64,000 nucleotides of DNA, taken from the NCBI GenBank assembly GCA_036365515.1, contig CM070877.1, positions 68,847,022 to 68,911,021 on the forward strand, in the 5' to 3' direction. Positions within the stretch are counted from its first letter, which is position 1. Each line of letters opens with the position of its first letter. The notes under the pieces were generated by a model. The model made no database searches and was not told the origin of the DNA. It worked only from the letters and a program-made list of their open reading frames with translations. A program made the position numbers and the translations under genes. Source of the stretch: Torymus aiolomorphi (lineage: Eukaryota; Arthropoda; Insecta; Hymenoptera; Torymidae). Positions 27,181 through 59,799 of the stretch are shown piece by piece.

Positions 27181-28661
27181 TGTAGCGTAGTGATTGATTA
27201 TCCCACTGCTAAGGGTCAGGATTGTCCTCAGCTCCCTTACCAATCACTACGCCACCGATCATTTACTCCTCACCAGCAGTTGAGTCCCAACTCTCTCGGG
27301 TGGTTCGAACGAACTGCACGATCACGCTGAACTCCGACACAGAAACCCACAACGACTTATAACCGCTATATTATCGCCCTGAAAACGGGTAGGGAGAAGG
27401 TGGGAATAGACACGCACAGATAGAAATTATAGTCGCCAGTAAGAACACAGAGGGTAATAGTAACTAAGTTTATTCAATGCAAAAGATATGCAGCAACTGC
27501 CGTCGAGCCTTCCACTTGTTCCCTGGAAGGTTCGCTAGCCTAGAACAACACAAAATGGACACTCGAATAACTATTCTCGAACGATGGCTCGAAGGGGCAC
27601 GATTCCCAATGATCGCAACACCTAATAAAATCCGAAACTCCGGGGGTGATCCACTCCACGCACTCTGAAATAAAGAAGGACTCGACCTACCGACTTGGAC
27701 ACCACACTATCTCAATCACGACGCAAACGTTCCTCAACTTACTCTACTGCTGGTGACTTCTATTGGCGTTCTACCTTGATCTGCTAGCTAACCTACTTCG
27801 TTGCGAGTTAGAATCAGAGAGAGACCGGTCCAACCTTCTCCAGATCATCACCTTGCTTTTGACTCTTTTTTGACTCGTGGTTATCAGTGTCTGGCCCCCT
27901 TTTCCCCCTATCGTGGGGTTTTCCATGACCCGCATGTAATTAGAGCCGTGACACGGCTCTAGAAGGACATGGGCAGTCGTTTCCCTTATCTCCACCCTCC
28001 ACCTCCCGCAATGACCACCGATTGGTATTCGCGATACCTAATTGGCCCGTTCTGTGCGCGCGCACCCTAAACCTCAACCCCTTGACCCCGTACCGTCACG
28101 CGATGACTCGAGTTGTGACCGAAGTCCCTACTGTTCAGCCCGCTAGGTATTATTGCGAGTGTACTGCCCCTGACGGTCCCTGACGCGGTCGCTAACGCGC
28201 AATAATATGATCGCGCCTTAATTACGCGCGCACTCTCCGAACGCACTCACTCTTCGAGTCTCCTCTCTCTCCCGCCCGCGACTGCTGCCTCTACTCTCTC
28301 TTCCATGCGTGCGCGCACTGTAGTGTCGTCGCGATCCCTACCTCGCCGCTTCGCGCTCCCACTCTCTCCATGCGCGAGCACCGGGGCGCGGCGCTCAGTT
28401 CCCACCGGCCGCGTTCTTGTTCACCTCGCGCTCTATCTCTCCCTCTCAATGTCGGCTGTCGACGCAGCTCTCCGCCTCACTCGACCCTCCCTCGCGCCTC
28501 CCCCCCTGTCGTGGCTACGGCTAGCGCTCTCCTGGCTGCTTGGCCCGACGCGTGTTACTGTGTGAGTGTGCGTGAGTAAGTGCGCCGCCTGCTCGACAAT
28601 ATGGCGGCGCGCAGCAGACATGTGCTTGCGCCCCGCGGATGCCGTGCAGGCAGTTACATGT
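27181..28661 (-). mobile_element. Gypsy element 1, left LTR (inverted, 5' tip deleted)
   Basis: Reading on the minus strand from 28661 to 27181, this is the counterpart of the plus-strand LTR at 35165-36615. Shared landmarks include the CGCGGGGCGCG region, the long GC-rich middle and the end ...CACTACGCTACA. The first 12 bases of the LTR and the PPT are missing at 28661/28662, where zinc-knuckle ORF sequence joins directly, so a deletion has occurred. Long frames on both strands here are LTR artefacts. Confidence 0.7.
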
Positions 28662-29337
28662 CGGCAAGGCCTCCGGACTCGTTCCCTCCGATAGCGGGTG
28701 TCTGGCGACGGCCTCCGTTGCTTCCCAGCTACTCTGGCACGTGTCGGCGTTGGCGCTGGTCTGGCCGCGTCCCAGCAAGGCGTCCCTCCGGCTGTGACTG
28801 GGCGGTCGGTTGCCCCCCCCCCCACCGTCGTTGCGGCACACCACTCCTCCTTGTTCGCAGAGGTAGGTCAGATACGCCTCTCTGTACCGTGGACATGCTC
28901 GCAAGGTTGTTCCCCGCCGGCCGCAGTTATAACAGAACAGACTCGGCGGCTCGTGACAGTTAAATTGCGTGTGCCCAGCCTGTCTGCAATTAAAGCACGC
29001 GCCGCGGGGAGGATCTCGCCCGTCCAACGGTACGGAGCGGATACCTCCAAACAGGACTCCGCGGGTGGGGCACGCCCGTAGGGCCGGAAACCGGTCCGGT
29101 GACCGTGGTCGCCGTGGCGAAAGTGGCCGGCCAAAATGGTTGGAGACCGAGGGAGCCTCTGCGGGTTTTACGGCCTCCGTTGCTTCGTCCCTGGACTGCG
29201 AGGGAGAGGCTGGTGTCCCTTCGGTCGGATGCGGCTTCCGGGCTGGGGCCGATGGGGTTGATCCCTCGTCATCACTCTCCAGTCTATGGGGGTCGAAACG
29301 CTCCCGGCGCCCTCATCCACGTGGCCACACAGGCAAC
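28662..29337 (-). pseudogene. Gypsy element 1, left zinc-knuckle ORF fragment (inverted)
   Basis: The minus-strand frame 29027-28521 contains CFNCRQAGHTQFNC and CYNCGRRGTTLRAC, two nucleocapsid-type zinc knuckles (the second lacks the usual His). They are followed by an Arg/Gly-rich tail that fuses into the LTR. Upstream (to about 29337, other frames) it matches the acidic/proline-rich part of the plus-strand ORF at 33.27-33.5 kb. At about 29337 the sequence switches to plus-strand protease, marking a breakpoint between inverted pieces. Confidence 0.7.
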
Positions 29338-29339
29338 TA

Positions 29340-29700
29340 AAGGAGTTGGTGGGGGTCGAGGATGTGGTGGAGACAGTAACACTAGACAACAGAAACTTTA
29401 TTCGAGTCATGGTCAGAGGTGAACCGTATCTTGCGCTATTAGACCTTGGTGCTACAATATCGCTAGTGGGCTCACGACTCTCAAATAAATATCGAGTTCG
29501 CCTACGAGAGTCGAGTGGCCAGGTGAGAGGGATATCGGGAGTCCCAATAAAGTTGCAGGGTAACTTACGCATCTCAATCGACTTCGATGGCCACCTAGGA
29601 ATATTGGAGTTTCGAGCAGTCGAGGAGATTAAAGCGATATCATCTTAGGTATGGACTTTGGGGTCGAGTGGGACTTGTAGTTTCGGTTTCGAGCCAAACA
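29340..29700 (+). pseudogene. Gypsy element 1 protease (decayed)
   Basis: Retropepsin-like sequence with LLDLGATISLVG, where D-T/S-G is expected (here D-L-G), followed about 60 codons later by ILGMDFGVEWD. Frame +3 is open to 29648, with the flap and C-terminal motif continuing after a stop. The protease would cleave Gag and Gag-Pol. The altered triad and frame breaks indicate an inactive copy. Confidence 0.75.
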
Positions 29701-29929
29701 ATGGAAGTGCGAAGAGCAAGGGGATGGCACCCCTTTGCGGACAATATCGAGGATTCGAGCCCGGCGATCATAGCCGAATGTACAGACTTAACGTAAATGA
29801 CACCGAGTGAAGCCGAACGAATCAAAGAAATTGTCGATCCATTGGTTCATAAACAGGCCACGGACTATCTACCAATCATGCACCTGACGGAACATCACAT
29901 CGAGCTGACCGACTACACGCCAATTCGTC

Positions 29930-30512
29930 ATGCACCTAGGCGACGATCGCCAGCCCTGTGGTGAGATGCTCCGAGCGGGGATCATCGAGATATCCGCAAG
30001 CGCATGGTGCCACGCTCCTGTAATCCAGAAAAAATCAGATGGAAAATTTCGATTTTGCATTGTTTTTCGAGACTTAAACGCCAGGAGTAAAAAGGATGCC
30101 CATCCAATACCAAACATGGACGGCATACTAGATAAGCTGCGAAGAGCGAAATATTTACATCTCGAAGGTGGACTTAAAGAATCCATATTTCCAGGATGCC
30201 AATCGTACTGACAAATACGCCAGCGACATTTACAAGCTGATTGATGCATTATTCGGTCCTGAAATGGAGCCAAATGTGTTCGGATATCTGGATGACATCA
30301 TTATCGCGACCAATACCTTCGACGAACAGCAGAAATGGCTGGAAATCGTGCTAACGAAGATTCGAGATGCACAGTTAACGGTGAACTGGAAGTTTGGATG
30401 TTCGAGGGTGAGATATTTGGGATACTTATTGGATCGGGATGGGTTGAAGCCAGACGCAGAGGGGTTGAGCCGATCCTACGATATCCAGTCCCTAAAACAA
30501 AGAAACAGTTGA
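29930..30512 (+). pseudogene. Gypsy element 1 reverse transcriptase (decayed)
   Basis: The N-terminal fingers/palm part (29930-30211) has APVIQKKSDGKFRFC followed by FRDLN (the DYRxLN motif, mutated). The palm (30168-30512) has FGYLDDIIIAT, the YxDD catalytic box, and a YLGYLLDRDGLKPD thumb-proximal motif. A segment between the two is missing and the frames differ. The reading frame then runs into the (AG)80 tract after KKQLKRFL. Confidence 0.8.
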
Positions 30513-30521
30513 AACGGTTCT

Positions 30522-31251
<730 letters not shown>

Positions 31252-31350
31252 GGAAGCCCATCGCAGTACAAGTCGTGAAGGTTAGAGGATAACTTAATAT
31301 ACAAGCTGAGAAGCGATCCCATTTTAGGCCCAGTAACAGGGGAAGACGAC

Positions 31351-32434
31351 ATGTGGAAAATCGTGATACCAGCCGAGTACCGAAATCGAGTCCTTGTTCA
31401 CCGCGAGTTGACAGCAGGCTACCTGGGGGTAGAAAAGACCTACGAGAGGGTCGCACAAGAGTATTACTGGCCGGGAGTTCGGCACGGCGTGTACCAGTTC
31501 GTACAGGAATGCGACGAATGCCAGCGTTACAAAGCCGACCAGACAGCACCAAAAGGGTTAATGGAGGGTCGAGTTATCAAGCGCCCATGGGCGGTAGTAG
31601 CATCCGACTTAATGGAGTTTCCCCAGGGTAAAGGTCACTATAAGTACGCAGTCGTCTTCCAGGACTTATTCACTCGCTGGGTCGAGATGCGGCCGCTGCG
31701 AGCGGTCACTGGCAAAAATGTGGTAAAAGCTCTCGAGGAGTTGGTACTATTCCGATGGGGAACCCCGGGATTACCTTCTCACGGACAACGGGAAGGAATT
31801 CCGTAACAAGGACCTGGGGCGAGTTCTCGAGGTCTAAGGAGTGACGCTAGTAACGACGCCTCCGTACCATCCCCAAGCCAACACAATGGAGCGCAGCAAT
31901 CGGACCTTAAAAATGATGATCGCCACGTTCGTCAAAAATGACCATCGAAATTGGAACTAGCACCACCACGAGTTGCGACACACTATGAATACGGCGGTCC
32001 AGTTGAGCACTCGAGTTTCACCTGCGTTTCTAAATTACGGTAGGTAACCTGCCCCGGTGAAGAGTCTGAGGAGAGAGGTAGAGGTCAAGGGTCGTAAAGT
32101 GCGCATCTCACCTGAAGTATGGGCGGACCGAGGGAGAAGGCTGAACGCGTTGCGCGTTCTCGTGACGAAGAACATCGAAAGATCACATCAACGGCAGGCC
32201 GAATATTACAACAAGGGTCGCCAGAACGTTCCTTTCCAAGTGGGGAACATGGTCATGCGTAAGACACACATCCTGTCGAGTAGAGCACAGAAATTCTCCG
32301 CTAAGCTCTCTCCAGATTGGGAGGAACTCTATGAGATTCTCGAGGTCAAGCCCCCGAATGTTTACATGCTGGATATGGGGGGCGGACGCAGGAATCCTGA
32401 AGTGCATGTGAAAGAATTGAAGAAGTATCGCTAG
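31351..32434 (+). pseudogene. Gypsy element 1 integrase (decayed)
   Basis: The zinc-binding N-terminus is present with GYLGVEKTYERV (second His replaced by Tyr) and ECDECQRYK. The core has VVASDLMEFP, then a frameshifted TDNGKEF motif near 31790 and PPYHPQANTMERSNR near 31860-31890, supplying the D, D and E positions. The C-terminal part (32057-32434) includes FQVGNMVMRKTHILSS and ends HVKELKKYR followed by a stop. Frames change at least twice. A purine run (AAAAAGGGGGGG) follows at about 32440-32455. Confidence 0.8.
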
Positions 32435-33735
32435 GGTCGAATGAAAAAGGGGGGGTAGTGGTGAAGGAGGTATCAATGTCAACGGTGCTAAGTAAGTGTA
32501 TCGTCGTGGAAGTAAGGTGGTAGATAGTGATGCAACTCCTTCTGTGGTTCTTTTGTTTGTGTGTAACTAGTTCTTTCTTGTAGCGGAGTAGGAAGGATGC
32601 GCACTCGAGGTAATCGGGGTTAGTTGCAGGATGTCAAACAACGACGTAGCCGCTACTGCTACCGAGGTCGCCAGGGATTCAAGTCCCTGTCTGAGCCTCT
32701 CCCCTCTTCGTTCGCCCTTCGACGCCAGCAGCTAGGCCGCCTCGCTAGAGGAGATGCTGTTGGCGGATATGAGTCCTCACGACAAGTGGGGAGTGGCAGT
32801 GGCAATGGCCTCAAAGTGCCCAAGGAGGGCTGTGGAGCCCCAGTGGTTACCCTCACGGCACCATCGTTACTCAGGGGAGTAAAGCGCTCAATTATGGAGG
32901 CGGTCATGGACTGCGAGGTACTGTTGGGGGCCATGGAGGGAGAGAAGGGGTGGGGAAAACCCACAACCAACAGCCGGTAGAGGAGCTACACCGGTGGTTA
33001 CTGCAAAGTGACCACTCGGCGGACCTTTCACCGCCGTACATCCGGGTGACTCCCACCCAACACTCCACTGCTTCCATGGCAATACCTGGGGTCGCGAATA
33101 TCGAGGGGTCGAAAAAAGGCATGCCCGGACACGTGCGAGAACAGCCCGAAAATGAGGGGAGGTTCAAGCTATTAACCTTGGCAGCCATCGAGCCATTCCC
33201 GAAGAAAGAGCAGGAGTGGGACGAGGACGGGCCCTCCCCGCGGCTGCTCCAAAATGTGGCGCAGTCGCCGCGTGGACGAGGGCGCCGCGAACGCTTCAAC
33301 CCCCGGAGGCTGGACAGTGATGAGGAGAAACCAGCTACACCGGTGCCAGCCAGAAAGTTGCCGCCCGCCGAGGAGGAGAATGCCGGGGAGGAAACGGCCG
33401 AGCTTACAACCACTGGCGAGGCAGTGGGGACACCAGCCTCTCTCCCGAAGTCCCAGAACGAAGTAATGAACGCTGTAGTACCCGCAGAGGCCCCATCGGT
33501 CTTCAACTGGTAAGGCCGGCCACCTTCATCACGGCGAGTATATCCACCCGACCGATTGCCGGCCCTACGGGCGTACCCTATCCGAGGGGTGCTGTTCGGA
33601 GGCATCCGCACCGTACCGTTGGACGTGCGGGACCCCCTCTCCTCGCGGCGCGTGCTTTAATTGCAGACAGGCTGGGCACACGCGATTTAACTGTCGCGAG
33701 CCGTCCAGTCTGCTCTACTAAAATTGCGGCCGGCG

Positions 33736-35150: not shown

Positions 35151-36615
35151 GGCGAGGGGGGTATTGTGACGGAGTCACATGTAGCTGTTTGCACGGCATC
35201 CGCGGGGCGCGAACACATGTCTGTTGCGCGCCGCCATGTTATCGAGCAGGCGACGAGAACGCCGTGCAGGTGGCGCACGCACTCACGCACACTCACACAT
35301 TAACGTGCGCCGAGTCGAGCAGCTAGGAGAGAGCGAGCAATAGCCACGAAGGGTGTACGGGGGGAAGGCGTGAGAGGGCCGAGTGACGCGGAGAGCGGCG
35401 TCGTGAACCAACACGGAGAGGGAGAGAAATAGCGCGAGGTGGAAAGTGGGAGCACAAAGCGCCGAGGTAGGGATTGCGACGATACTACAGCACGCGCACG
35501 CATGGGAGAGAGAGTAAAGGCAGCGGTCGCAGGCGGGAGAGTGAAGAGACTCAAAGAGTGAGTGCGTTCCGAGAGTGCACGCGTAATTAAGACGCAATCG
35601 TAGTATCGCGCGTTAGCGACCGCGTCAGGGACCATCAGAGGCAGTACACGCACAATAACACCTAGCGGGCAGAACAGTAGGGGCTCCGGTCACAACTCGA
35701 GTCATCGCGTGACGGAACGGGGTCAAAGGGTCGAGGTTTAGAGTTTGCGCGCACAGAACGGGACAATTGGGTATCGCGAATACCAATCGAGGGTCAGGGA
35801 GGGAGGGGGGGAGACAAGGGAAACGACTGCGCATGTCTTTATAGAGCCCTATTACGGCCTTAATTAAAGGCAAGTTGTGGAAAAGCCCCGCGATAGGGTA
35901 ATAAGGGAAAAAAGGGGCCAATCACTGATAACCACGAGTCACCAGAGGGTCAAAAGGGAGGTGATCAGTTGGAGAGAGTTGGAGCGGTCGCTCTCTCTAA
36001 TTCTGACTACCTAAGCAGTAAGTTGCCTGGACTCTAGAAGTAGAATGTCCGAGAAAACACCAGTGTTGAAGTAAGTTAGAGAAGGTTTGGGTGGTGACTG
36101 GTGGGATAGAATACTGTGTTATTAAGGTCAGTGGATCGAGTTCGGCATCCCTTTTTAGAGTTTCGATGTTCATTAGATGCTGCAATTATTGGAGATCGTG
36201 GCCATTCCAGCCATTGTTCAAGAGTAGTTATTCAAGCGTCCTTTTTGTGTTGTTCTAGGCCAGCTACCATTCCAAGAGATGAGCGGAAGGCTTACGGCAG
36301 TTGGTGCCTAACTTTGAGTTTAATAAACTTAGTTAATTTCAGTCTTGGTGTTCTTATTAGCGAGTGTAACTTATATGTGTACATGTCTATTCCCACCTTC
36401 TCCCTACAGATTTGCAGGGCGATAATATAGCGGTTGTAAGTCGTCGTGGATTTTTGTGTCGGAGTTCAGCGTGGTCGTGTAGTTCGTTCGAACTACCCGA
36501 GAGAGTTGAGACTCAATAGCCGGCGAGGAGTAAGTGATCGTGGCGTAGTGATTGGTAAGGGGAAGTCAGGACAATCCTGACCCTTAGGAGGACAGTAATC
36601 AAACACTACGTTGCA
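35151..36615 (+). mobile_element. Gypsy element 1, right PPT and LTR
   Basis: The PPT (GGGCGAGGGGGGTAT, about 35151-35164) is followed by an LTR starting TGTGACGGAGTCACATG at 35165. By comparison with the inverted copy, the LTR ends ...CACTACGTTGCA at 36615 (1451 bp). Beyond it, a duplicated phrase 'caaacctgca...aattcttggaaaa' (about 36621 and 36693) begins the flank. Confidence 0.7.
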
Positions 36616-37500
36616 ATCTTCAAACCTGCACAGAATTCTTGGAAAAACGTTTTGAACAGGTTGAGACCAGTACGGAGCTCGTTTATGCAAGTTCAAACCT
36701 GCATAAAATTCTTGGAAAAGCGGTACGGAGCTAGCTCTCTGATTGATCGAGCGTCGCCATCCGTACAAAGGCGAGGTACGAAATTCTTAAAAATTTTTTC
36801 CTAATTCTCGGAAATTTAGACGAGTTTCTTCACGTCTCCGCTCACTATATTACATACGGACGCTACCTTAACGGCAATTCTACCTTACCGACAGAGCTGA
36901 CAACCTTAGATAACCATCGGTAATTGTAAGAATCGTAATACAATAACTTTTAAAATAACATGCAAAGAACGCATTATATACTATGTGAACTACATATACT
37001 ATGTATACTGCATATACTATGTGTAGTACATATACTATATTTACAACATATACTATGTGTACTACATATACTATACATACTACCACTCTGCACCGATCAC
37101 TCTACCCCCACCACCGCGCGCCAGCGCTCTCCCCACCATGATATCATTACCAACGATCGATAAGGTAGAAATCTACTTTAGCGACAGAGTGGAAAATGTA
37201 AACTGGTGGGAAATTTAAAAATGGCGGGTAATTTTAAAGGGCGAGAAATTTAAGAGGCTGGGAAATATCCGAAAATTTTCGCCATTGCGTCTGTGGCAGA
37301 AATTCGTGGAGCATCGAACGGCAAATTTTTTTTTTTAATGATGAGAGCCCCAACCGTCGCTCTCACCTGTGAGATACAACTACATTACCTCTCCATCATT
37401 AATTAATAGAGTTGATTCATAATCCATATGTATGTATTTGAAGTATATAATTTTCATCAGCTTGACGTTGTGAAGTGCACACGCAGCTTTGTATGCTTCA
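36616..37500. other. Flank of gypsy element 1: TA-rich minisatellite, no gene
   Basis: Contains 'ctacctta..gacagagc' units and a TATACTACATATACTATG-type minisatellite (36975-37080), matching the order seen at 26340-26650. The remainder is AT-rich with a T-run at 37327. No coding sequence was identified. Confidence 0.5.
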
Positions 37501-39332: not shown

Positions 39333-40625
39333 CGAGGGTCATTTGACAAGTACCTAGCCTCACCGCCAGATGGTGCCACTATCGCACCAGAAATACACTA
39401 CAGTGCAGTATCTTCCTGTAAACGGTTACAGACGAAATTTCAGCCGGATCGGAGTTGTAGTTTATTTTTGACAGCGTGTGAAAGCAAATGTGTCCGTTGA
39501 TTTTTGAAAAAATGGAGAAAGAACAATATCGGTCGGTGATTCGATTCTTGTTTTTGGAAGGGAAATCGCGCAGTGAAATTAAAGAACGCTTGGATGCAGT
39601 GTATGGGGATGCTTCTCCTTCGATGGCGACCGTTAAATTTTGGTATAACGAGTTTCAACGTGGTCGTACGTCGGTTTTTGATGATCCACGCCCAGGTGCT
39701 CCGAAAACAGCCACTACGGAGGAGAACGTGACAAAAATACACGATATCGTTTTGTCAGACCGCCGATTAAAGGTGCACGAGATAGCTGCGATAGTAGGCA
39801 TCTCAGAAGAACGCGTGTGGCATATCCTACATGAGATTTTAGGCATGGGGAAGCTGTCAGCAAGGTGGGTGCCGCGTTTGCTGACTGCAGACAACAAGCG
39901 CATCCGTGTGACCAGTTCAGAACAGTGTTTGGAGCTGTTTAATCGCAATCCAAAAGAGTTTTTGCGTCGTTACGTGACCGTCGACGAAACATGGATTCAC
40001 TACTACACTCCAGAGACCAAGGAGCATTCAAAACAGTGGACCTTACCCGGTGAACCTGCTCCGAAGAAGGCGAAGATGGTCCCGTCGGCCGGAAAGGTGA
40101 TGGCCACTGTTTTCTGGGATTCTCAAGGTGTGATTTTTATTGACTATCTGGAGAAGGGCAAAACGGTCACAGGACAGTACTACGCCGAACTATTGAGCCG
40201 ATTTGACGCCGTGTTAGAAGAAAAACGGCCCCATTTGTCTAAAAAGAAAGTGCTTTTCCACCACGATAATGCACCGGCTCACACTTCTGCACTCGCCACG
40301 GCTAAATTGGTCGAATTACGCTACGAACTGCTGCCTCATCCACCGTATTCTCCAGATTTGGCTCCGTGCGACTTTCTTTTGTTTCCGAACCTAAAAAATT
40401 CGCTCGCCGGGAAGAGATTCCACTCCAATAACGAAATAATCGCCGCCACGGAGGCCTATTTTGCAAACCAAGAGAAAACATTTTTTCAACGGGGTTAAAA
40501 AAATTGGAACACCGCTGGACCAAGTGTATTCAACTAAAAGGAGACTACATTGAAAAATAAATTTTATTTTTTGTAAAATTTTGGTGTTTTCATTTGTAGG
40601 CTAGGTACTTATCAAATGACCCTCG
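39333..40625 (+). mobile_element. Mariner transposon, nearly intact
   Basis: 1293 bp with inverted termini CGAGGGTCATTTGACAAGTA and its complement at the right end, flanked by TA on both sides (39331-39332, 40626-40627). It is inserted in the 168-bp satellite. Size, TIRs and TA target match the mariner family. The transposase is open for 336 codons, so the insertion is probably fairly recent. Confidence 0.95.
39488..40498 (+). CDS. Mariner transposase (C-terminus frameshifted)
   Basis: A DDE-type transposase of 336 codons that cuts and pastes the element at TA sites. In order it has an N-terminal helix-turn-helix region (YRSVIRFLFLEGKSRSEI and VKFWYNEFQRGRTS), a second HTH (VHEIAAIVGISEERV), the WVPRLLT signature, and catalytic aspartates in VTVDETWIH, FHHDNAPAH and SPDLAPCDF with 34 residues between the last two (D34D). 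The frame stops at FFQRG; the following bases continue in another frame with typical mariner C-terminal residues and a later stop near 40560. One missing base therefore shortens the protein by roughly 25 residues. The upstream ATG at 39488 or the in-frame ATG at 39512 could be the start. Activity is doubtful but not excluded. Confidence 0.95.
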   Translation: MCPLIFEKMEKEQYRSVIRFLFLEGKSRSEIKERLDAVYGDASPSMATVKFWYNEFQRGRTSVFDDPRPGAPKTATTEENVTKIHDIVLSDRRLKVHEIAAIVGISEERVWHILHEILGMGKLSARWVPRLLTADNKRIRVTSSEQCLELFNRNPKEFLRRYVTVDETWIHYYTPETKEHSKQWTLPGEPAPKKAKMVPSAGKVMATVFWDSQGVIFIDYLEKGKTVTGQYYAELLSRFDAVLEEKRPHLSKKKVLFHHDNAPAHTSALATAKLVELRYELLPHPPYSPDLAPCDFLLFPNLKNSLAGKRFHSNNEIIAATEAYFANQEKTFFQRG

Positions 40626-41910: not shown

Positions 41911-41931
41911 TATATACATTAGAATCTTTGT

Positions 41932-43018
41932 TGTGACACGGCAAATTGCCTGTCACTGAAGGCAGAGCGCTTAGTCAGATACACGGCGGTCGCGGCGTGC
42001 ACCGACTCGGCTCGCGACGTCGTACACACACATGTGCGCGCCCGCATCTCCCCAACTGCGGTCCTCTGTGCACACATACCTACGTGCGCACGGTCAGTCC
42101 AGCTGCCCATGTCTAGGCGTGCACCTTTCCCACAGGTTTTCCCTCCCGTCTAGCTCGGCCAAGGAGTCGACCAGCCACAGCTACAGCGAGGACAAGCTAT
42201 AGCTGAAGCGGCAGCGGTTCTCGCTCTCCCGGCTGCTGCAGCAGAGACAGAGTGAGAGAGAGAGAGAGAGAGGGCCGAGCCGTATGCGGCTGTCCGGCCG
42301 ACGGCGCGTGCGAGCATCGGCAGCCGAGAAGGACTGCTTGCGCGCGCCGCAGTAAAGAAGACGGCCGATCGGCGAACTGGAGCGGAGAGCAGAGCGAGCA
42401 CGCCGGCCGGCATTTTATTCATTCTGTCGCCTACCGCCGTGCCGCGTGTGCGCAAAGAGAGTAGCACCGCTGTAATCGTGCTACCGCGTGACTCGACGCC
42501 GACTCACTCGGGGTTTTTGCGCCTGTCGTCGCTGCAGACCGCCTACGCCGCACCGTCGCAGTGCCGTGCCCTGGTGGCATCCATCGCCGAGAGTGAAAGG
42601 AGAGAGAGTGGACAACAGCTGCGAATTGCTGCTAGGCGAGAGAGAAAGGAGAGAGGTGTTGTGGCAGCATCACGCCCTGGCCGAGGTTTGTCCATAGTGT
42701 TTTACTATTTCCCCTCGTTCCCCGCCGTGTGTGCGCGCGTACGCCCGAGAGCCGCGCAACAGTTAAGTACTCGCGCAATAGCTTCAGCTCGAGCTGAAGC
42801 TGTAGGAGTAGAGTCTTAGTGGTTTTACTACCGGCTCGCGCTAGCCGGCGATTAGTTTGCGGTGCGCTTGACGCACGCACCTGGCGCCCATGTACATTGG
42901 ATTGTAGACTTAGTGTTTTAGTAGTTTAATAAAGTATTCTATTAGTTATCCTAGCTTTTGGAGTGTACTTTGAGTATTACCTGCGCACCTCTGCCCTGAT
43001 CCCCAGCAGAGTGTGACA
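41932..43018 (+). repeat. Gypsy element 2, 5' LTR
   Basis: 1087 bp, from TGTGACACGGCAAATTG to CAGCAGAGTGTGACA. It differs from the 3' LTR mainly in a shorter (AG)n tract (42247-42271), plus scattered substitutions. An AATAAA signal lies near 42928. Open frames in it are not genes. Confidence 0.9.
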
Positions 43019-43020
43019 AG

Positions 43021-43040
43021 TGGCGCAGCCAACGTGGGGC
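43021..43040 (+). promoter_or_regulatory. Primer binding site, tRNA-Lys-like
   Basis: Two bases after the 5' LTR the sequence reads TGGCGCAGCCAACGTGGGGC. Apart from an extra AG after TGGCGC, this is the complement of the 3' end expected for a tRNA-Lys (CUU) primer. This fixes the LTR boundary. Confidence 0.7.
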
Positions 43041-43845
43041 CACGGTAAAGGCCGTGGCAAAGTAGAAGGGATCCGCGTCGTGATTTCGCCATTGCGGAGC
43101 GCACACACAACCGGGAACCGCGGGGGGAAAAGCGTTCTGGCGGCCATTTTTACATTACCGCGTGCAAGCATTTATAGACGCCGTAACTTTGTTAAATTAG
43201 CCAGACGTTTACGAATAATTGGTAGATAATTGTACTTCCAATAATAATTGAATTACTTTGGAAATTTTATTGCGATTTGTGCGTGATTCTGCGATTAAGA
43301 GTTAATGAGATACTCGCAAAATCACATCTTGCTACAGCTTTACCCACGCGGCACTTAAAGAATCTGCAACGTGCTCAGGGAGTGTGAAGTTGAGAGTAAC
43401 TTCCTGATCACGCGTGCAGGACAGAATCATTGCCTGTGTTCCATTTTTTCCTGGTTTGACATTTTGGTCATTTTCATTCGGATTTCATTCCTTTTCCGTG
43501 GGAGAAAGGCCTCGCTTACGTTTCCTTTCCATACCTCCTTGAAATTCCCACGCTTTCGTTAAAAGACTTTTAGGAACGGGGAGGGGGGAATTTTGCTTCA
43601 GGAGTAATTTGGTTTTTGCGAGAGTACGAGAGATAGGTGCGTCATCGTCGCACGGGAATTTCTCACGTAACTCGGCTGATTGGCTTGATTTTTTTTTGGT
43701 TTTGCCTTGCTGTGCTTGCTTTTAGATTATTTTTTTTGTATTACTATAATTGCTAGTTCATAACTTAATTAATTGAAACTAAGTGGGTGGGGGAAAAGAA
43801 AATCAACGGAGCTACTCGGCCGAGGCTAACTGAGGAAAGATTAAA
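43041..43845 (+). other. Gypsy element 2 leader between PBS and gag
   Basis: About 800 bp of untranslated leader, T-rich around 43680-43740 with a purine-rich stretch near 43575-43590. Packaging or translation signals are probable by position, but none can be pinned down by eye. Confidence 0.5.
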
Positions 43846-46302
43846 ATGGAACACCACGATTGGAGTTGGGCTTCGCTCGGTGTCGACGAAAATGATTTAA
43901 TGTGCGTCGACCCGATAGCTGCAGCTGAAGTGCTGAAGAGATCAATTATAAGTTAACCGACGGGGAAGTCGCGATGACTGCTCAGCGGTTCGGGCTGAAT
44001 ATTCGCTCAGACGCGATCATTTTGCGTAATAGGTTGGAGAGGCATGAAATGCGACGCCATTTTGGCGCAGACGCCGCGCCATGGGACCCGGCCAGAGACG
44101 AGCCGGCGGACGAGTCCACTTCTGCGCATAGTCCTTCGTCGTTGAGTAGGCAATCTGTTGCACGGTTTTCGCCATCCAGGGTTCCAGTGCAGCCGGTGGA
44201 AGCTCCGGAGCATTCAGAAGCAGAGCCGCTCTCCACAGGGCAATCGATAGGCAGTTTTGGTGATCCAATTTCGACGGAGGGGCCGTTGCAGATTTTTACG
44301 TCGAGGCTGCACATCGAAGTGAGTGAGCCGCGGCGTGCGGCCGAGCAGCCTACAGCTGGCAGACATGTTGCTTCAGCGTTACAGAGTTCTGACGCGCAGA
44401 GGCGTGTTAGCATCGCCGCGCCGGAAGTGTTTCATGACATGAGGGACTCAGCTCCTAATCCGCGTGCACAATCCACACGTTATCCTCTCGGTCCACTTCG
44501 TGCTCACGAGCATAGCACATTCATGGAAAATAGTATGGATTTAACGAGTGTGGCGAGTGCGCGGAACGAGATTCCATTATCCGCGAGTGAAAGAGGGGCG
44601 GGGCGGCAGCCGAATGGATTGTTCGACGGTACCTCGTTTTTGCCGCTTCCAGCGTTGCCGTCGCAGCAGATGAGATATCCGGCTGCTCCGTCCACAATGT
44701 ATCCGGGGAGAGAATTCGGCATCGTTGCTTCTGTGGTTGGTTCCCTGCCTTCGACTTGTATTCCTCAGCTTTCAGCTAATGTTGCTCTAGGAAATTTCGA
44801 CGGCGTAGCAGGGCCTGCTGTCTACTCACAATGTCCAATGCCGCGAGTAACACCAGGTTATCATGAGCCGCCTCTCATGTCCTCAGCGTCGCTCGCTCAA
44901 AATTTTGTTTCAGCTGGAGCTTCACAATCGAGTGGATTTAGAGCACGAGTCGAGCCGGCGTGCACGTATTACAGTCAGCCAGCGCCGCCATCGTCGTTTC
45001 ATTATCCGCCTGGGTATTTTCCGCAGCCTTTCATGTCTTCGCAGCCGCTGATGCCATATGCTCCAGTGTATCCTCCGTATACGAGCAACGTTCTGCAAGC
45101 GCATCCGCATTTTTCGCCTGCCGTTCTGCCGCCTGTTGTGACAGGGCCTCATTCAGCTCCAATGCATACGGATGCAAGGTTGCAGACTCACCCGGGGAGA
45201 TTTGATGTCTCTGCTCCGGGGATGAGTCAAGATGCGTCGTTTTTCAAGCGTTCATCGCTTTATAAAGAGAAACGTACGACGGAGCTACTCACCAAGTGGC
45301 ATATTTCGTTTAAAGGGGATAGGAAAAGAGACCCCAAAAGTTTCATTGCAGATCTAACGAAATGCAAAGACACTTACAAGCTGACTCTCGAGGAAATAGT
45401 GAAAGCCTTGCCATCAGCTCTCGATGATGAGTCGTGGCAATGGTTTCGCCGAGAATATCAGTTCTGGAGGACGTATGAAGAATTTGTGAACGCGTTTCGC
45501 CTGCATTACAGCTTTGAAGACGTGCAGGTGAGACTACGGAAGGAGCTGGAAGTACGAACGCAAGGACCAAGTGAGGAGATTTCCACTTATCTGCTGAAAG
45601 TGAACATTGGGAGAGCAGCTTGATCGAGTATACCAGAAGCTGCACCCATCATATCGGCTGCGGATCGAGAGGAAGGACTTCGAAAATTTTACGGAGTTGC
45701 AGAAGCTAGGGAAGCGAGAAGAGCTGAGGAGAGCACAGGAGAAAGCTTACAAGCCGCCGCCTCCGATAGCGGATTCAGTTTTCCCTGCTTCAACGTACAC
45801 TCCTCCGAAGCAGCAGCGGCAGGTGAAACTGGCCTCAGTGGTTTCGAGCACGCCGGAAGAAAACGAGCTGAAGCTATCCAGCTCTAGCAATCTAGCTCCG
45901 GTCGCAGCCACCCAGACGGAAGGAGGAGAGAAGCAGCGATCGACGAGGGAACCGAAGTTTAAATCGACGGATGGACAGCGGGAAGAGAAAAAAAATCGGA
46001 AGCGACATGCTCGCAGCAAGAGTAAGGGTCGCCGCAGCAACCAAAAGGGAAATGCTCGAGCGAAGCCGGCGGAGAGCGAGCCTAAACAGGAAAAGCTGAA
46101 GATCGAGACCGTCCCCCCCAAGGCAAAGTACGAGGACATGTAGCGACGGAAAATGCGAGAGCCATGTTTCCGCTGCGGCCAAGCCGGACATTGGAAACGT
46201 GAGTGTATGAACGCTGCCGTCTGCCTAATGTGCGGACAGCCTAATACTACGGCGCGTAGATGCACCAAGTGCAATTCAACTACGGCGGCGGGAAACGAGT
46301 AA
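43846..46302 (+). pseudogene. Gypsy element 2 gag (three breaks)
   Basis: Structural protein that packages the RNA. A good candidate start is the ATG at 43846 (MEHHDWSWASLGVDENDL). That frame ends at 43957, and the matching continuation (KLTDGEVAMTAQRFGLN) is in the frame of the long ORF to 45623. After a Pro/Ser-rich N-terminal half comes a retrotransposon Gag domain (KWHISFKGDRKRDPKSFI, WQWFRREYQFW, VNAFRLHYSF). A second shift near 45600 leads to the frame 45607-46143 with a Lys/Arg-rich region. A UAG at 46141 interrupts just before the nucleocapsid: CFRCGQAGHWKREC (46165-46206) and CLMCGQPNTTARRC (46222-46263). The true gag stop is UAA at 46300. Confidence 0.85.
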
Positions 46303-49300
46303 GAGGGGAAGTTAGCGGAGTCAACTCACCCCCTCCTACTTCAGACTCGACTACTCCCACTTCTGATTCGATCGCGATTACTCCAGAGAACAGTTCCGAG
46401 GGAGCTATAAGCGAGGGAGACAACCCTCAAGTTTTAGCTCCAGAATCATTGATAATGAGAAGCGCTATCAGCAACGTCGAGCCAAGGTTATTCTTCAACA
46501 TAGAATTGAATGGAAGAAAACTCTTAGGCATGCTCGACGATGGCTCCGTTCACTCGTATCTCGGCAAAGGCGTCAGCAAGGAATTTGCCGAGAAATTGGA
46601 ACAGGAAGCAGCTTCAGTACGCGTAGCTGATGGAGGTGCAGTGAAGCTACAAGGAGTACTGAATCTGACGGTGAGCATCGATAATACACAATTATTCCGT
46701 GTAGCAGATGAGCTACAGTACGACTGCATTCTCGGAATCGACTTCAAACGGTTGTTTAAGATGAAGATCGACTACGAGAACGATACACGGTGGACACCGA
46801 TGGGAGTAGTGCATCCGTTTTACCCTTACGGCCAAGATCCAACCTGCTTCTCAGCTCTAGCCAGCATAGGAGGACTGAGTCATGCTACCGCTGATCAGCA
46901 GTTGGTTATTAACGAAATCAAACAGAGATTGATTCCACCGACACCGGAAAAGCTAGGGTTAGGTAATGTCGCCCCGCATTTCATTGACATTCAAGGAAAT
47001 GAACCCATTCGCCAAGCTCCTCGGGAGTATACTCCGAAGATGTTGCAGACGGCTTGGGCTGAAGTCGATAGGATGCTGGAGGAGGGAATTATCGAGCCCT
47101 CGGATAGCCCCTGGCGAAGCTGCCCTGTGTTAGTTCCGAAATTATACGATCTGTTCCGATTCTGCATAGACTATAGGCAAGTTAATAAGCATACTAAGTC
47201 TATCGCGTATCCATTGCGAAACATGGATGATATACTTGATAAGTTAAATTCCGCTAAGTATATTTCTAAGCTAGATTTAAGCCAGTCATACCACCAGATC
47301 CCGTTGGATCCGAAGTGCAGAGAGGTCACCGCATTTTCAGTACCAGGGCGAGGACTTTTCCACTTCATGCGGTTACCATATGGGCTGACAAATGCTCCAG
47401 CTGTGTTCCAGCGCATCATGGATAACCTAATCAAGGCTGCTTGGGAACCGTATGTGTTCGCCTACTTAGACGATGTCATTATCATCTCGCCGACATTTGA
47501 AGAGCACACAAAGTGGTTAGAGATCGTGCTCACGGCGTTAAAAGATGCAAACCTACAGATTAACCTCAAAAAGTCTGAGTTTTGTTGCGCGGAGGTTAAG
47601 TACTTAGGTTATATCATTAACGAGGACGGACTGAAGACGGATGAAGACAAGGTGAAGCCCATCCTCGAGTATCCAGCACCCCTCAACATCAGGCAGTCGA
47701 GAAGATTTCTCGGCATGATTGGCTGGTATTCCAGATTTATAGATCACCTAGCAGGGTATAAAGCACCGCTAACCAAGGTGCTGAGGAAGGATGTTCGGAG
47801 GCAGTGGCACGAAGAGCAACAGCAAGCGTTTGAGAAGCTGAAGCTCGCACTGACGCAAGCCCCTGTGCTTGCAAGGCCAGATCTGTCGCTGCCCTTCACT
47901 CTGCAAACTCTGCAAACTCTGCAAACTCTGCAAACTCTGCGAACAGATGCGAGTGATCACGCTATAGCTGGAGTACTGACGCAAGTATTTGATGGCGAGG
48001 AGCACCCTATCTATTTTGTGAGTAGGACTCTGTCGAAGGCAGAGAGAAATTATACTGTCACTGAGAATGAGTGCCTCGGCGTCTTATGGTCCATCGAGAG
48101 GCTGTGAGGTTATTTGCTAGGTGAGAAGTTTACAGTAATCACCGACCACCATAGTTTATTATGGTTAAATAACCTCCGAGATCCAACGGGTCGTCTCGCC
48201 AGATGGAATACAGCTCTGCAGATGTATAATATCGAATTTGTACATCGTAAAGGTGCGTTGTACAAAGTCCCAGACGCGTTGTCGCGTGCTTGGGAAGGAA
48301 CTTACGAGCTTGCAGCGATCGCTACTGCTACAGCTGACGATCCGTGGTATCAAATGAGAATAGGTAATGTTGAGAAAAATCCTAAGAAATACCCGGATTG
48401 GAAGGTAGTAAACGGCTTGCTGTATGCGCATCGTCCGAATAAAACTGTTGACCCATTGCTGCCGGACATGGATGCGTGGAAGCTCGTTCTTCCAGAAGCC
48501 GATCGAGAAAAAGCTCTAGCTGAATGTCATAACACCCCGCAATCAGGACACTTGGGCGTGGACAAGACGTTTGCGAGAGTCGCGACATACTATTATTGGC
48601 CCGGTTACTACAGAGATGTTTGTTGGTATGTCGCCGTGTGCCAAGTATGTCAAGCTCACAAAAGCTCTCAGCAAGCTCCAGCAGGGCTGATGACCGAGCG
48701 AAATCTTGAAGGCCCATGGATCGTAGTGGCTTCAGATATAATGGGCCCAAAGCCGCCTTCGCGTACTGGTAGCAGATACATCATTGTTTTCGAGGATCTG
48801 TTCACCAGATACGTCGAACTGAAGGCGTTGAGAAAAGCAGATGCTACCTCAGTGCTGAAAGCTTTTGAGGAACTGATTGTAAATCCTTGGGGTTGCCCTC
48901 GGGTTTTGCTCACGGATAATGGCACAGAATTCTCCAACAGAATGGTTACGAAGAGGTTGAATGAGTATGGAATTCTGCAGTCCACTATTCCGCCGTATCA
49001 TGCTCAAGCAAACCCGGTGGAAAGAGTCAACCGGAATTTACGACCCATGATTAATAGCTTTTTAGCAGACGATCATAGGGATTGGGATTTGCACTTGAAC
49101 GAGCTGCGTTTCGCGTTGAATAGTGCCGTGCACTCGTCATTAGGAGTTTCTCCTGCGTTTCTTAATCTAGGGCGTAATCCTGTTCCCTCTACCCTATTAA
49201 GAAGTCATTTAGAAAATCCTATTCCTACCTCTCCTTCCGATTTGGATAAGTGGAAGAATCGATCCAGCCGACTGCCTGCCTTGCACGATTTGTAGCAAGG

Positions 49301-49966
49301 CAAGTACGGAATTATAATAAAAATCGACGAGAGGTCCTGTACCAAGTCGGAGACCTTGTACGTCGCCGAAATCATGTATTATCGTCCGCCGAGGATCGAT
49401 TTGCGGCTAAGCAGGCGGCTAGATTTGTCGGGCCGGCTAAGGTAGTGCAAGTCTATTCTCCCGTAGTATACTTGGTAGAGGATCTTGAGCCTCAAAGGCG
49501 GACGAAAGTCTTCGTCAACGATTTAAAAAAGTATACACCTCCAAGAGAAACGCAGCAGCTGGAAGCTCAAGCTACAAGTCCAAATAATGATCTTTCAGGA
49601 AATGGACTCGTCGTACGAGGAGTGGACGCCAGCCCGAGCGATAGGGAGAGCCGCACACCAGGCACGACCCCTTCAACCACCACCGATGCCGCGACAAGTG
49701 GGCAGAGGACGCGCTCAAAGGAGAGCGCAATTCCCTCCGCCACCGCCTGGGTTAGCAGCGAAATACTGCCTCCCCGCCGCCGGGGTCGCCCCCCAAAACC
49801 CCCTCAGCTTCCGGGGAGGGTTCGAGGTCTCCCCATTGCCACCTCCGATGCCGAGCCCAACCGGATGCGGGGGAGGCCGCACCCTACAGCTGCCGCTCCT
49901 GCCCCAGCTCGCACCGCTACAGCCCTGCGCCGAGGCCCAGGTCGGCCGTGCAAGGTCCAGCTCTAG
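46260..49966 (+). pseudogene. Gypsy element 2 pol: PR-RT-RNase H-integrase with AT-hook tail
   Basis: The pol frame overlaps gag by 43 nt from an ATG at 46260. Protease: MLDDGSVHSYLG (residues 91-102), where D-T/S-G is expected. RT: RFCIDYRQVNK, LDLSQSYHQI, FAYLDDVII. RNase H: LRTDASDHAIAG preceded by a TLQ-repeat expansion, ITDHHSLLWL, KGALYKVPDALSR. Integrase: HNTPQSGHLG...CQVCQAHK zinc finger, VVASDIMGPKP, LLTDNGTEFS, NPVERVNRN. There is one in-frame UGA (48105-48107) and one frameshift at about 49250-49295. The integrase tail continues in frame 2 with VNDLKKYTPP and then an Arg/Pro/Gly-rich extension with three AT-hook-like motifs, stopping at 49966. Two lesions plus the protease change suggest recent inactivation. 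Confidence 0.9.
46290..46335 (+). promoter_or_regulatory. Predicted -1 ribosomal frameshift signal at the gag/pol overlap
   Basis: The gag frame reads G GGA AAC GAG TAA, so GGGAAAC (46290-46296) sits as X XXY YYZ in the zero frame. A 6-nt spacer (46297-46302) is followed by a stem GAGGGG (46303-46308)/CCCCTC (46330-46335) with an inner stem AGTT/AACT. Slipping back one base leads exactly into the pol frame. All elements of a classical -1 site are present in the right phase and spacing. Function is inferred. Confidence 0.75.
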
Positions 49967-50299
49967 TAGCTGCAGCGAGGAGAGGCAGCTGCCACGCCCC
50001 GCAGAGCAAGACTGAGCAGAAGCAGTGGGGCCTGAACCGCCAAAGGAGTGGCTGGCAGGAGACGGGGGACCGCCGAGAGAACGGCCATCGCCGATCCGCA
50101 CCCGACCGTCGCATGAGGCCGGCGTAAACGGCTCGGCTGCTGGAATTGCGGAGAATTTGGCCACAGCAGGATCCACTGCCCCCAGCCGCGCATAAGAGTC
50201 TGCTACATGTGTGGTCGAGAGGGGGTCAGTGTGGCCACATGCCCCAGCTGTTACCAAACCTGGGGCCAGCGACAGCTGGAACGCCTAGGCAGGAAGTAG
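49967..50299 (+). pseudogene. Gypsy element 2 extra 3' zinc-knuckle module
   Basis: Still in the frame of the integrase tail, after three stops (49964, one mid-way, 50114), an open stretch 50117-50299 encodes RRKRLGCWNCGEFGHSRIHC (a perfect C-x2-C-x4-H-x4-C) and CYMCGREGVSVATC, then a stop. It is distinct from the element's own gag knuckles 4 kb upstream. The second knuckle most resembles CYNCGRRGTTLRAC of gypsy element 1. It may have been fused to pol or expressed from a spliced RNA; an acceptor-like TCTTTCAG with an ATG at 49602 lies upstream in another frame. Whether it is an ORF of its own is undecided. Confidence 0.6.
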
Positions 50300-50990
50300 G
50301 TCCAGCTGCAGCGGTAGCCTACCGAAAGGGATATGTATGTGTAGTGTCGGTAGGGAGAGCCTAAAGCAATAACGTAGCCACCTTATCTCATCGAGATGAT
50401 TTTTCATTTATCTTACCTATCCCCTTCCATTTGATTTTCTAAGTAAGAGAGAGACGTTTTCTCTCACCAGCAAGCGTGAAGCTGGCCGCAATGAAATAAC
50501 ATGATTCAGAGAGAGAAATTCGTGAATCGTTGGCTAAATTGGTTTATTCGCGATCGAGTCAGCATGTTATTTTAGGTTGCCAGAACGCAGCTCAAAAAGA
50601 GCAGAAATTCAAGGGATCGACCAGGTAAGATGCTGTTGCAGCATAAAAATTAAATTCTTTATACTATTGTAATTTCTGAGTGAATGGAGATGTTGGAGTG
50701 TGGTGTGGAAGCTCGCGGTCGGGATCGGCACCTGCGTATGATTGTAGTTCGGAAAGGTTACAGAGGCCAGGTTGCTATAGCTAGGAAACACACTCACCGG
50801 GTTACTCTCACACAGATCAACACGTAAGCCAAGCTGCAGAAGAAGAAGCTAAGGGGACACAAACAGATACACTCACCCCGCTGCAGCTAATGCCGATTAG
50901 CTTAGGTTAAGTATAGCTAGAGCTAAAAAGCTTTAAGTAGTTGGAAGTTAAGTATCTATAAACGTGCGAAGGTATTCCGCCGAATACTTC
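50300..50990 (+). other. Gypsy element 2 untranslated 3' internal region
   Basis: About 690 bp between the zinc-knuckle frame and the PPT. No open frame of note; a few GA-rich patches. It corresponds to the position of an env gene or UTR, and no env-like transmembrane sequence was seen. Confidence 0.5.
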
Positions 50991-50993
50991 GAG

Positions 50994-51009
50994 TTTAGGA
51001 GGGGGGAGT
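50994..51009 (+). promoter_or_regulatory. Polypurine tract of gypsy element 2
   Basis: TTAGGAGGGGGGAGT immediately precedes the TGTGACAC of the 3' LTR. The same CTTCGAGTTTAGGAGGGGGG phrase precedes the LTRs at 6179 and 16906, showing common descent. Confidence 0.85.
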
Positions 51010-51335
51010 TGTGACACGGCAAATTGCCTGTCACTGAAGGCAGAGCGCTTAGTCAGATACACAGCGGTCGCGGCGTGCGCCGACTCGGCTCGCGACGTCG
51101 TACACACACATGTGCGCGCCCGCATCTCCCCAACTGCGGTCCTCTGTGCACGCATACCTACGTGCGCACGGTCTCTCCAGCTGCCCATGTCTAGGCGTGC
51201 AACTTTCCCACAGGTCTCCCTACCGTCTAGCTCGGCCAGGGAGTCGACCAGCCACAGATACAGCGAGGACAAGCTATAGCTGAAGCGGCAGCGGTTCTCG
51301 CTCTCCCGGCTGCTGACAGGAGCAGCCCACGCCAG

Positions 51336-51382
<47 letters not shown>

Positions 51383-52124
51383 GAGCCGTATGCGGCTGTC
51401 CGGCCGACGGCGCGTGCGAACATCGGCAGCCGAGAAGGACTGCTTGTGCGCGCCGCAGTAAAGAAGACGGCCGATCGGCGAACTGGAGCGGAGAGCAGAG
51501 CGAGCACGCCGGCCGGCATTTTATTCATTCTGTCGCCTACCGCCGTGCCGTGTGTGCGCAAAGAGAGTAGCTCCGCTGTAATCGTGCTACCGCGTGCCTC
51601 GACGCCGACTCACTCGGGGTTTTTGCGCCTGTCGTCCCTGCAGACCGCCTACGCCGTACCCTCGCAGTGCCGTGCCCTGGTGGCATCCGTCGCCGAGAGT
51701 GAAAAGAGAGAGAGTGGACAACAGCTGCGAATTGCTGCTAGGCGAGAGAGAAAGGAGAGAGGTGTTGTGACAGCATCACGCCCTGGCCGAGGTTTGTCCA
51801 TAGTGTTTTACTATTTGCCCTCGTTCCCCGCCGTGTGTGTGCGCGTACGCCCGAGAGTCGCGCAACAGTTAAGTACTCGCGCAATAGCTTAAGCTTGAGC
51901 TGAAGCTGTAGGAGTAGAGTCTTAGTGGTTTTGCTACAGGCTCGCGCTAGCCGGCGATTAGTTTGCGGTGCGCTTGACGCACGCACCTGGCGCCCATGTA
52001 CATTCGATTGTAGACTTAGTGTTTTAGTAGTTTAATAAAGTATTCTATTAGTTATCCTAGCTTTTGGAGTGTACTTTGAGTATTACCCGCGCACCTCTGC
52101 CCTGATCCCCAGCAGAGTGTGACA
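51010..52124 (+). repeat. Gypsy element 2, 3' LTR
   Basis: 1115 bp, same ends as the 5' LTR, with a longer (AG)n tract at about 51341-51380. It is followed directly by the TTGT target duplication and a TA/CA microsatellite. Confidence 0.9.
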
Positions 52125-52147
52125 TTGTATATGTTAATTTGCCATAT

Positions 52148-59055: not shown

Positions 59056-59799
59056 GGTGGTTCTCCTCGGACTCCCTAGTCAAAGCAGTGCTAAATGTAG
59101 AAGTTACCTAAAATTTAAAAAACCATAGTTGTAATGTGATTTATTTATTTAAAATGATAGAGATAGTCCATGTATTATAAATAAAGTGTATTTAACATGA
59201 CTAAGATAACTTTTTTCACAAAATGGCGACTTTCTAGAAACTAGATATCGTCACTACAAACAATTGTTGATAAATCACTGGAATCTTTTATGTTTCTTAA
59301 CCGATTTTAGTTTTCAAGGTCTCATTTTGCTCCTTAAGAAATTTCATGGGGACTTGCCGAAGGAAAAATTAAGAATTATTCAAAACTTAGAAAGTTATAG
59401 CCAATTAAAAGAATATTTTGTTTTAACGACATGCATGATTTTATGAACAATTATCTATAACTTTCTGAGTTTTGAATAATTTTTAATTTTTTCTTCGGCA
59501 AGTCTCTATGAAATTTCTTAAGGAGCAAAATGAGACCTTGAAAACTAAAATCGGTTGAGAAACAAAAAAGATTCCAGTGATTTATCAACAATTATTTGTA
59601 GTGACAATATCTAGTTTCTAGAATATCGCCATTTTGTGAAAAAAGTTATTTGAGTCATGTTAAATATACTTTATTTATAATACATTGATTATCTCTATCA
59701 TTTTAAATAAATAAATCACATTACACTATGATTTCTTTAAGTTTTAGGTAATTTCTACATTTAGCATTGCTTTGACTAGGGAGTCCGAGGAGAACCACC
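59056..59799. mobile_element. Palindromic MITE flanked by TTAA
   Basis: 744 bp with termini GGTGGTTCTCCTCGGACTCC and its complement, TTAA on both sides (59052-59055, 59800-59803). The arms of about 360 bp are nearly perfect inverted repeats around a short centre (about 59425). A TTAA target with G-rich ends fits the Kolobok or piggyBac groups; the 5' GG favours Kolobok. There is no coding capacity. Confidence 0.8.

What the first reader, a model, noticed from the sequence alone, without database searches (positions are those of the whole stretch)
49967..50299. Second zinc-knuckle module in the env position, recurring in three gypsy-like elements
The complete element has its own gag knuckles at 46165-46263 and an additional pair (CWNCGEFGHSRIHC, CYMCGREGVSVATC) 3' of integrase. 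In element 1 a zinc-knuckle ORF lies between integrase (ends 32434) and the PPT/LTR (35151). In element 3 (minus strand) a knuckle (CCDCRVPGQIRREC) lies about 520 bp before the PPT at 53100. The standard order is gag-pol-(env), so a nucleocapsid-like module 3' of pol is unusual and may define a lineage with a duplicated nucleic-acid-binding protein.
Basis: partly seen in the sequence, partly recalled or inferred. Interest (0 to 1): 0.75.

Follow-up and report, generated by a model that had tools for sequence, protein, structure and literature searches.

The report
Overlapping zinc-finger gene beside pol
A family of jumping genes in an insect-like genome carries, in the place where related elements keep an envelope gene, a separate overlapping gene for a protein with two zinc fingers like those of its own RNA-packaging protein, and the part read in that frame alone shows the mark of selection.

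Summary
The 3' knuckles of element 2 are real, but they are the end of a larger gene than the interval given. In 36 of 41 copies examined (40 genomic loci plus the window) I located the start of a distinct frame, called ORF3 here: it begins MDSS..E.W.P.LAIGRA, overlaps the end of pol in the +1 frame, and ends in a CCHC plus a CX2CX9CX2C finger, the pattern of the element's own gag doublet. Beyond the pol stop, dN/dS in the ORF3 frame is 0.14-0.46 in 10 of 15 pairs of copies (dS saturated in 4; 1.30 in one pair with 5 changes); the other frames give 0.56-1.55 and 0.97-2.53. A YAG precedes the start in 36 of 36, as at gypsy env, so a spliced RNA is likely but unproven. Element 1's 3' ORF has a homologous doublet (hhalign 96.9%). 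Element 3 is not supported. The window copy of ORF3 is broken; open copies exist. Best reading: a nucleocapsid-like RNA-binding accessory protein in the env position. Genome searches for elements 1 and 3 did not complete.

The parts
41932..43018 (+). 5' LTR of element 2 (TGTGAC...GTGACA); TTGT just outside on both sides (41928-41931 and 52125-52128)
   Evidence: blastn self-match 94.3% over 1118 columns; ends read from the sequence
43637..43642 (+). candidate splice donor GTGCGT in the gag leader (inferred only)
   Evidence: GT at this column in 16 of 16 aligned leaders (15 loci and the window), GTGCGT in 15; no consensus GTRAGT shared by all subfamilies
43846..46272 (+). gag, broken in this copy, ending in its own doublet: CCHC 46165-46206, C4 46222-46272
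   Evidence: gag start motif found in 15 of 16 fetched leaders and in the window; doublet; weak Retrotrans_gag match below its cut-off
46260..49966 (+). pol: RT, RNase H, integrase, broken at least twice, with a proline/arginine-rich tail ending at 49966
   Evidence: Pfam RVT_1, RT_RNaseH, Integrase_H2C2, rve; in other copies the tail frame has dN/dS 0.94-1.29
49597..49598 (+). AG of the putative 3' splice acceptor TTTCAG|GAA-ATG
   Evidence: YAG at -6 to -4 from the ORF3 start in 36 of 36 copies
49602..50299 (+). ORF3: start MDSSYEEWTPARAIGRAA, +1 frame to pol, overlapping it 49602-49966; broken in this copy by a stop (50013-50015) and a frame change before the fingers
50138..50251 (+). ORF3 doublet: CCHC 50138-50179 and CX2CX9CX2C 50201-50251
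   Evidence: unbroken doublet in 30 of the 40 loci L009-L048
51010..52124 (+). 3' LTR of element 2, preceded by a purine tract at about 50997-51009
29420..32434 (+). element 1 pol (protease to integrase C-terminus), heavily decayed; no 5' LTR or gag seen, the sequence to its left is the inverted 3' copy
   Evidence: read from the sequence and its frames
32631..33735 (+). element 1 3' ORF (broken): ATG after gttagttgcag|g, CCHC 33653-33694, second finger decayed
28521..29312 (-). inverted copy of the element 1 3' ORF, open 263 aa, fingers 28893-28997 (last Cys of the second finger lost)
   Evidence: 12 relatives P0001-P0012, 6 of 12 with the full doublet pattern

Best explanation
Family 2 is a Ty3/Gypsy-type element (LTR-gag-pol-ORF3-LTR). 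ORF3 is a separate third gene of about 190-270 codons that starts inside pol and overlaps its end in the +1 frame. Shown: the conserved start, the frame, the overlap, purifying selection where ORF3 is the only frame, and a C-terminal CCHC plus C4 doublet of the same pattern as the element's gag nucleocapsid. Inferred: (1) ORF3 is made from a spliced subgenomic RNA whose 3' acceptor is the invariant YAG three bases before the ATG, the way gypsy makes Env; (2) the doublet came from a gag nucleocapsid and binds nucleic acid, with a low-confidence, proline- and Gly-Arg-rich N-terminal part as tether; (3) the protein acts on the element's own RNA, most likely in nuclear export or handling of unspliced RNA, less likely as an extra nucleocapsid in the particle. 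My estimates: real conserved gene 0.95; spliced expression 0.65; RNA-binding accessory function 0.6; export rather than packaging 0.35.
For: Start located in 36 of 41 copies, ATG in 35 of 36; start and fingers in one frame in 25 of 36, without a stop between in 17 of 36. Fingers in the +1 frame to integrase in 26 of 39 copies where both were found, in five of the eight groups I drew on the tree. ORF3-only part: dN/dS 0.14-0.46 in 10 of 15 pairs, third-position excess (e.g. 7/7/27 changes); other frames 0.56-1.55 and 0.97-2.53. Overlap: ORF3 frame 0.43-0.78, pol-tail frame 0.94-1.29 in 10 of 10 pairs of five copies, while the integrase C-terminus just upstream is 0.10-0.31 in the 10 usable pairs. 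YAG before the start in 36 of 36, although the pol codon that supplies the A is TCA, TTA, ATA, GTA or GCA. ORF3 as a protein of its own in contigs of unstated origin, e.g. P0041. Same doublet pattern in gag; homologous doublet in family 1.
Against: No RNA evidence. No consensus donor is shared by all subfamilies; the acceptor's pyrimidine tract is short. In 11 of 36 copies start and fingers are out of frame; in 4 of 39 one ORF joins integrase and fingers, as in P0021 and P0023, so a fused product cannot be excluded. L032, L047, L048 and L044 do not show the +1 arrangement. Of the 17 open copies L011 lacks the ATG, L034 has stops in its first finger and L037 has lost a finger Cys. Inside the overlap the third frame also falls below 1 in 9 of 10 pairs (0.61-1.29), and frame-openness alone is weak (0.02-0.42 of codon shuffles stay open). 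dN/dS pairs are not independent. RNA binding and function rest on resemblance; AlphaFold mean pLDDT is 55.
Confidence: 0.75

Rival explanations
1. The fingers are a C-terminal domain of Pol itself: an integrase tail ending in a zinc-finger doublet, made in one frame or by +1 frameshifting.
For: One open frame joins integrase and fingers in 4 of 39 copies (L015, L018, L041, L048) and in P0021 and P0023; the frame difference is 0 in 9 of 39.
Against: +1 in 26 of 39; in the overlap the pol-tail frame has dN/dS 0.94-1.29 while ORF3 has 0.43-0.78; a start codon and N-terminus are conserved that a fused product would not need; L015 differs in frame from 99%-identical sister copies.
Confidence: 0.15
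2. The module is a relic: gag pieces picked up by recombination or template switching, with no function.
For: Gag and ORF3 doublets share a pattern; P0053 and P0054 look by eye like gag joined to the ORF3 fingers; the window copy is broken.
Against: Selection between subfamilies; a conserved N-terminus that does not resemble gag; ORF3 open in groups of 99%-identical copies.
Confidence: 0.03
3. ORF3 is an antagonist of host RNA silencing rather than a factor acting on the element's own RNA.
For: Small protein of nucleic-acid-binding type with a conserved Trp-Gly near its end in most copies aligned. The analogy with silencing suppressors is recalled, not tested.
Against: No direct evidence; Pfam shows only zinc-knuckle-type matches for ORF3 relative P0041.
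Confidence: 0.15

Closest known systems
Errantivirus env (gypsy, ZAM and relatives)
   Same: Third ORF 3' of pol. [quoted passage not shown]
   Different: ORF3 reads as a zinc-finger protein without a long hydrophobic run; splicing not shown.
CERV of the nematode element Cer1
   Same: Accessory protein of an LTR retrotransposon with a candidate Cys finger, needed for nuclear export of genomic RNA (PMC10309623, passages).
   Different: CERV shares its first exons' frame with gag and has one possible C4 finger, not a CCHC+C4 doublet; the paper sees no homology outside nematodes.
Gag nucleocapsid of this element and of Ty3/Gypsy elements
   Same: CCHC finger followed by a second finger; this element's gag has the same CCHC+CX2CX9CX2C pattern.
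   Different: Linker of 5 residues in gag, 7 in ORF3; a different ORF at the other end of the element, with another N-terminus.
sORF1 and sORF2 of MDG1-group elements
   Same: Accessory ORFs outside gag and pol; in 7 of 22 Lepidoptera consensus sequences sORF2 lies downstream of pol (PMC11952523, passages).
   Different: sORF2 is a short transmembrane, fusogen-like protein; ORF3 is not.

Membership tests
Ty3/Gypsy LTR retrotransposon | Order gag, RT, RNase H, integrase between LTRs | tested here: met
   (element 2)
Ty3/Gypsy LTR retrotransposon | TG..CA LTR ends with a short target-site duplication | tested here: met
   TGTGAC...GTGACA, TTGT on both sides
Errantivirus (env-bearing Gypsy) | third ORF encodes an envelope protein (signal peptide, fusion peptide, transmembrane segment) | tested here: not met
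   ORF3 is a Pro/Arg-rich zinc-finger protein, no long hydrophobic run by eye; no envelope match in Pfam at E up to 1 for ORF3 relative P0041; no transmembrane predictor was run
Errantivirus (env-bearing Gypsy) | third ORF made from a spliced RNA | tested here: inconclusive
   YAG before the start in 36 of 36; donor not settled; no RNA data
Nucleocapsid-type zinc knuckle | CX2CX4HX4C | tested here: met
   Pfam zf-CCHC above its 20.8-bit cut-off for P0041 (22.8) and P0023 (21.1), below it for P0021 (19.0) and the window ORF (18.4)
CERV-like RNA export factor | nuclear protein needed for export of unspliced RNA | not testable with these tools
   needs expression data

The most novel reading that the evidence does not exclude
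A lineage of insect-like Ty3/Gypsy elements has replaced or pre-empted env with a spliced, pol-overlapping gene for a second nucleocapsid-like protein, a Rev- or CERV-like regulator built by duplicating gag's own RNA-binding doublet; the same solution, with a homologous doublet but an ORF that follows pol without overlap, is kept in a second family.
Probability: 0.35. Interest if true: 0.75.

Novelty: new variant of a known kind. Interest (0 to 1): 0.6.

Why it matters
A conserved third gene carrying a nucleocapsid-like doublet, partly dual-coded with pol, would suggest that Gypsy elements can build RNA-handling regulators from their own gag. It would also change how such elements are annotated: the last part of pol in this family lies over ORF3, and the AT-hook-like motifs of the pol tail may be a by-product of that. 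I saw no description of such an ORF in the listings of the 8 answered paper searches or in the passages read; these cover open-licence PubMed Central papers only, not subscription journals or repeat databases.

Tried and rejected
Pol tail as an AT-hook chromatin-targeting module: GRPPK-type motifs are there, but the tail frame has dN/dS about 1. Integrase-finger fusion as the ancestral state: first favoured from P0021 and P0023, dropped after the copy set. Spliced cDNA copies in the genome: the two loci without a detected integrase C-terminus (L012, L019) are not precise leader-ORF3 joins; no genome-wide search for such joins was made. Relatives in viral and prokaryote contig sets: none confirmed. 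Selection in family 1 from the two window copies: 14/17/24 changes by codon position, not informative. Structure of P0041: mean pLDDT 55.4, blocks over the fingers 59-78, one C-terminal helix; no fold search run. Five pairs with L037 in the integrase control are misaligned by a small insertion and gave 0.43-1.09; not used.

Selections: of the 148 matches, 40 loci (plus the window copy) were examined; 14 copies with ORF3 running from its start to the fingers went into the ORF3 alignment and 6 of them into dN/dS (5 in the overlap), which favours less decayed copies. L012 and L019 were left out of the tree (39 sequences). Papers: passages of PMC10309623, PMC2774666, PMC6338049, PMC8096092, PMC11952523, PMC12992720 and outline plus passages of PMC12440569; the rest as listings.

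Full report
What is in the window. Element 2 (41932-52124) is an LTR element with both ends: LTRs 94.3% alike, TTGT on both sides, and RT, RNase H and integrase in Ty3/Gypsy order after a gag whose start recurs in 15 of 16 fetched copies. A strict CCHC scan of six frames finds five motifs in 64 kb against a mean of 0.05 in 150 shuffles within 500-base blocks. The combined pattern CCHC plus CX2CX9CX2C occurs twice, at the end of gag and 3' of integrase, and never in the shuffles.

The interval given is not the gene. In its own frame 49967-50299 has three stops before the last one. Proteins from contigs of unstated origin first suggested a fused integrase tail (P0021, P0023), while others (P0014, P0027) end before the fingers in what looks like another frame. 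The window's own genome settled the matter. G000 (1.08 Gb, 21 contigs) holds 148 matches to P0023, a lower bound by the tool's statement. I took 40 loci and the window copy. Integrase and fingers were both found in 39: fingers in the +1 frame in 26, in frame in 9, +2 in 4; one ORF spans both in 4. The +1 frame upstream of the fingers shows a conserved start, MDSS..E.W.P.LAIGRAA, located in 36 of 41 copies (not in L012, L019, L032, L042, L047), with ATG in 35 of 36. Start and fingers share a frame in 25 of 36, without a stop between in 17 of 36. On the tree I drew eight groups by eye; five show the +1 arrangement in at least some copies, while L044, L048 and the pair L032/L047 do not. In copies whose pol tail is open the overlap is 365-482 nt; in L028 and L043 pol stops earlier.

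Selection. Beyond the pol stop, dN/dS in the ORF3 frame is 0.14-0.46 in 10 of 15 pairs of six copies, dS is saturated in four, and one pair with five changes gives 1.30. The other two frames give 0.56-1.55 and 0.97-2.53 (one undefined). In the overlap (10 pairs of five copies) the ORF3 frame gives 0.43-0.78 and the pol frame 0.94-1.29, but the third frame (0.61-1.29) overlaps the ORF3 range, so the overlap alone is weak evidence. Just upstream, the integrase C-terminus gives 0.10-0.31 in its own frame in the 10 usable pairs; five pairs with L037 are misaligned. Constraint thus passes from pol to ORF3 near the ORF3 start. The pairs share copies and are not independent, and L010 looks like a recombinant of two groups (by eye).

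Expression. The ORF3 start follows [CT]AG plus three bases in 36 of 36 copies. In the pol frame the codon that supplies the A is TCA, TTA, ATA, GTA or GCA, so the conserved AG is not explained by a conserved amino acid. [quoted passage not shown] A donor could not be fixed: GTGCGT at 43637 is the best conserved candidate I saw (15 of 16 aligned leaders), and no consensus donor is shared by all. Splicing remains an inference.

What the protein is. ORF3 is Pro- and Gly/Arg-rich with a short acidic start, and ends in the doublet; an unbroken doublet is present in 30 of the 40 loci. P0041 is ORF3 as a protein of its own. AlphaFold gives low confidence except around the fingers and a C-terminal helix. 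The simplest origin is a copy of gag's nucleocapsid doublet; P0053 and P0054, which look like gag joined to the ORF3 fingers, show that such pieces recombine, but no tree was made. The closest functional analogue I know is CERV of Cer1, whose candidate Cys finger is needed for export of genomic RNA (PMC10309623, passages). I commit to an RNA-binding accessory protein, with export as the single most likely role, as inference.

Elements 1 and 3. Element 1 carries a broken 3' ORF with an ATG at 32631, also just after a CAG; an inverted copy of its 3' end keeps it open at 28521-29312, with the last Cys of the second finger lost. Twelve relatives conserve it, six of them with the full doublet pattern, and its doublet is homologous to that of ORF3 (hhalign 96.9%, E 1.6e-10, 43% identity over 44 columns). 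It follows pol without overlap here; gag is not seen in this copy, so whether it is an extra module or a moved gag is open. The genomic surroundings of the relatives are unknown. Element 3 has a single motif without the His, no second finger and no pol-sized ORF nearby; I do not count it.

Verdict.

Noticed in passing
window 39482-40498 (+): Open 338-codon mariner-type frame with Transposase_1 and Mos1 HTH_48 matches.
   Followed up: no
window 15526-15621 (-): Two further knuckle-like motifs (CFNCYKFGHGAKNC, CGFCSGAHLTKDC) that resemble the gag-like ORF1 of a LINE (label recalled).
   Followed up: no
window 27180-28661 and 35177-36616: Element 1 3' ends in inverted orientation, 75% alike, on either side of the decayed pol; the left one is a separate or rearranged insertion.
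   Followed up: partly
window 33939-34194: Short tandem repeat of 8/16-base spacing (CATAAACCCATGCACC type) downstream of the element 1 3' ORF.
   Followed up: no
P0053, P0054: Proteins that look like gag joined to the ORF3 doublet, perhaps from pol-deleted derivatives.
   Followed up: no
L047: A copy in which gag is joined directly to the integrase C-terminus, an internal deletion.
   Followed up: partly
window 59130-59725: Long imperfect palindrome, 277-nt arms 94% complementary with 42 nt between.
   Followed up: no
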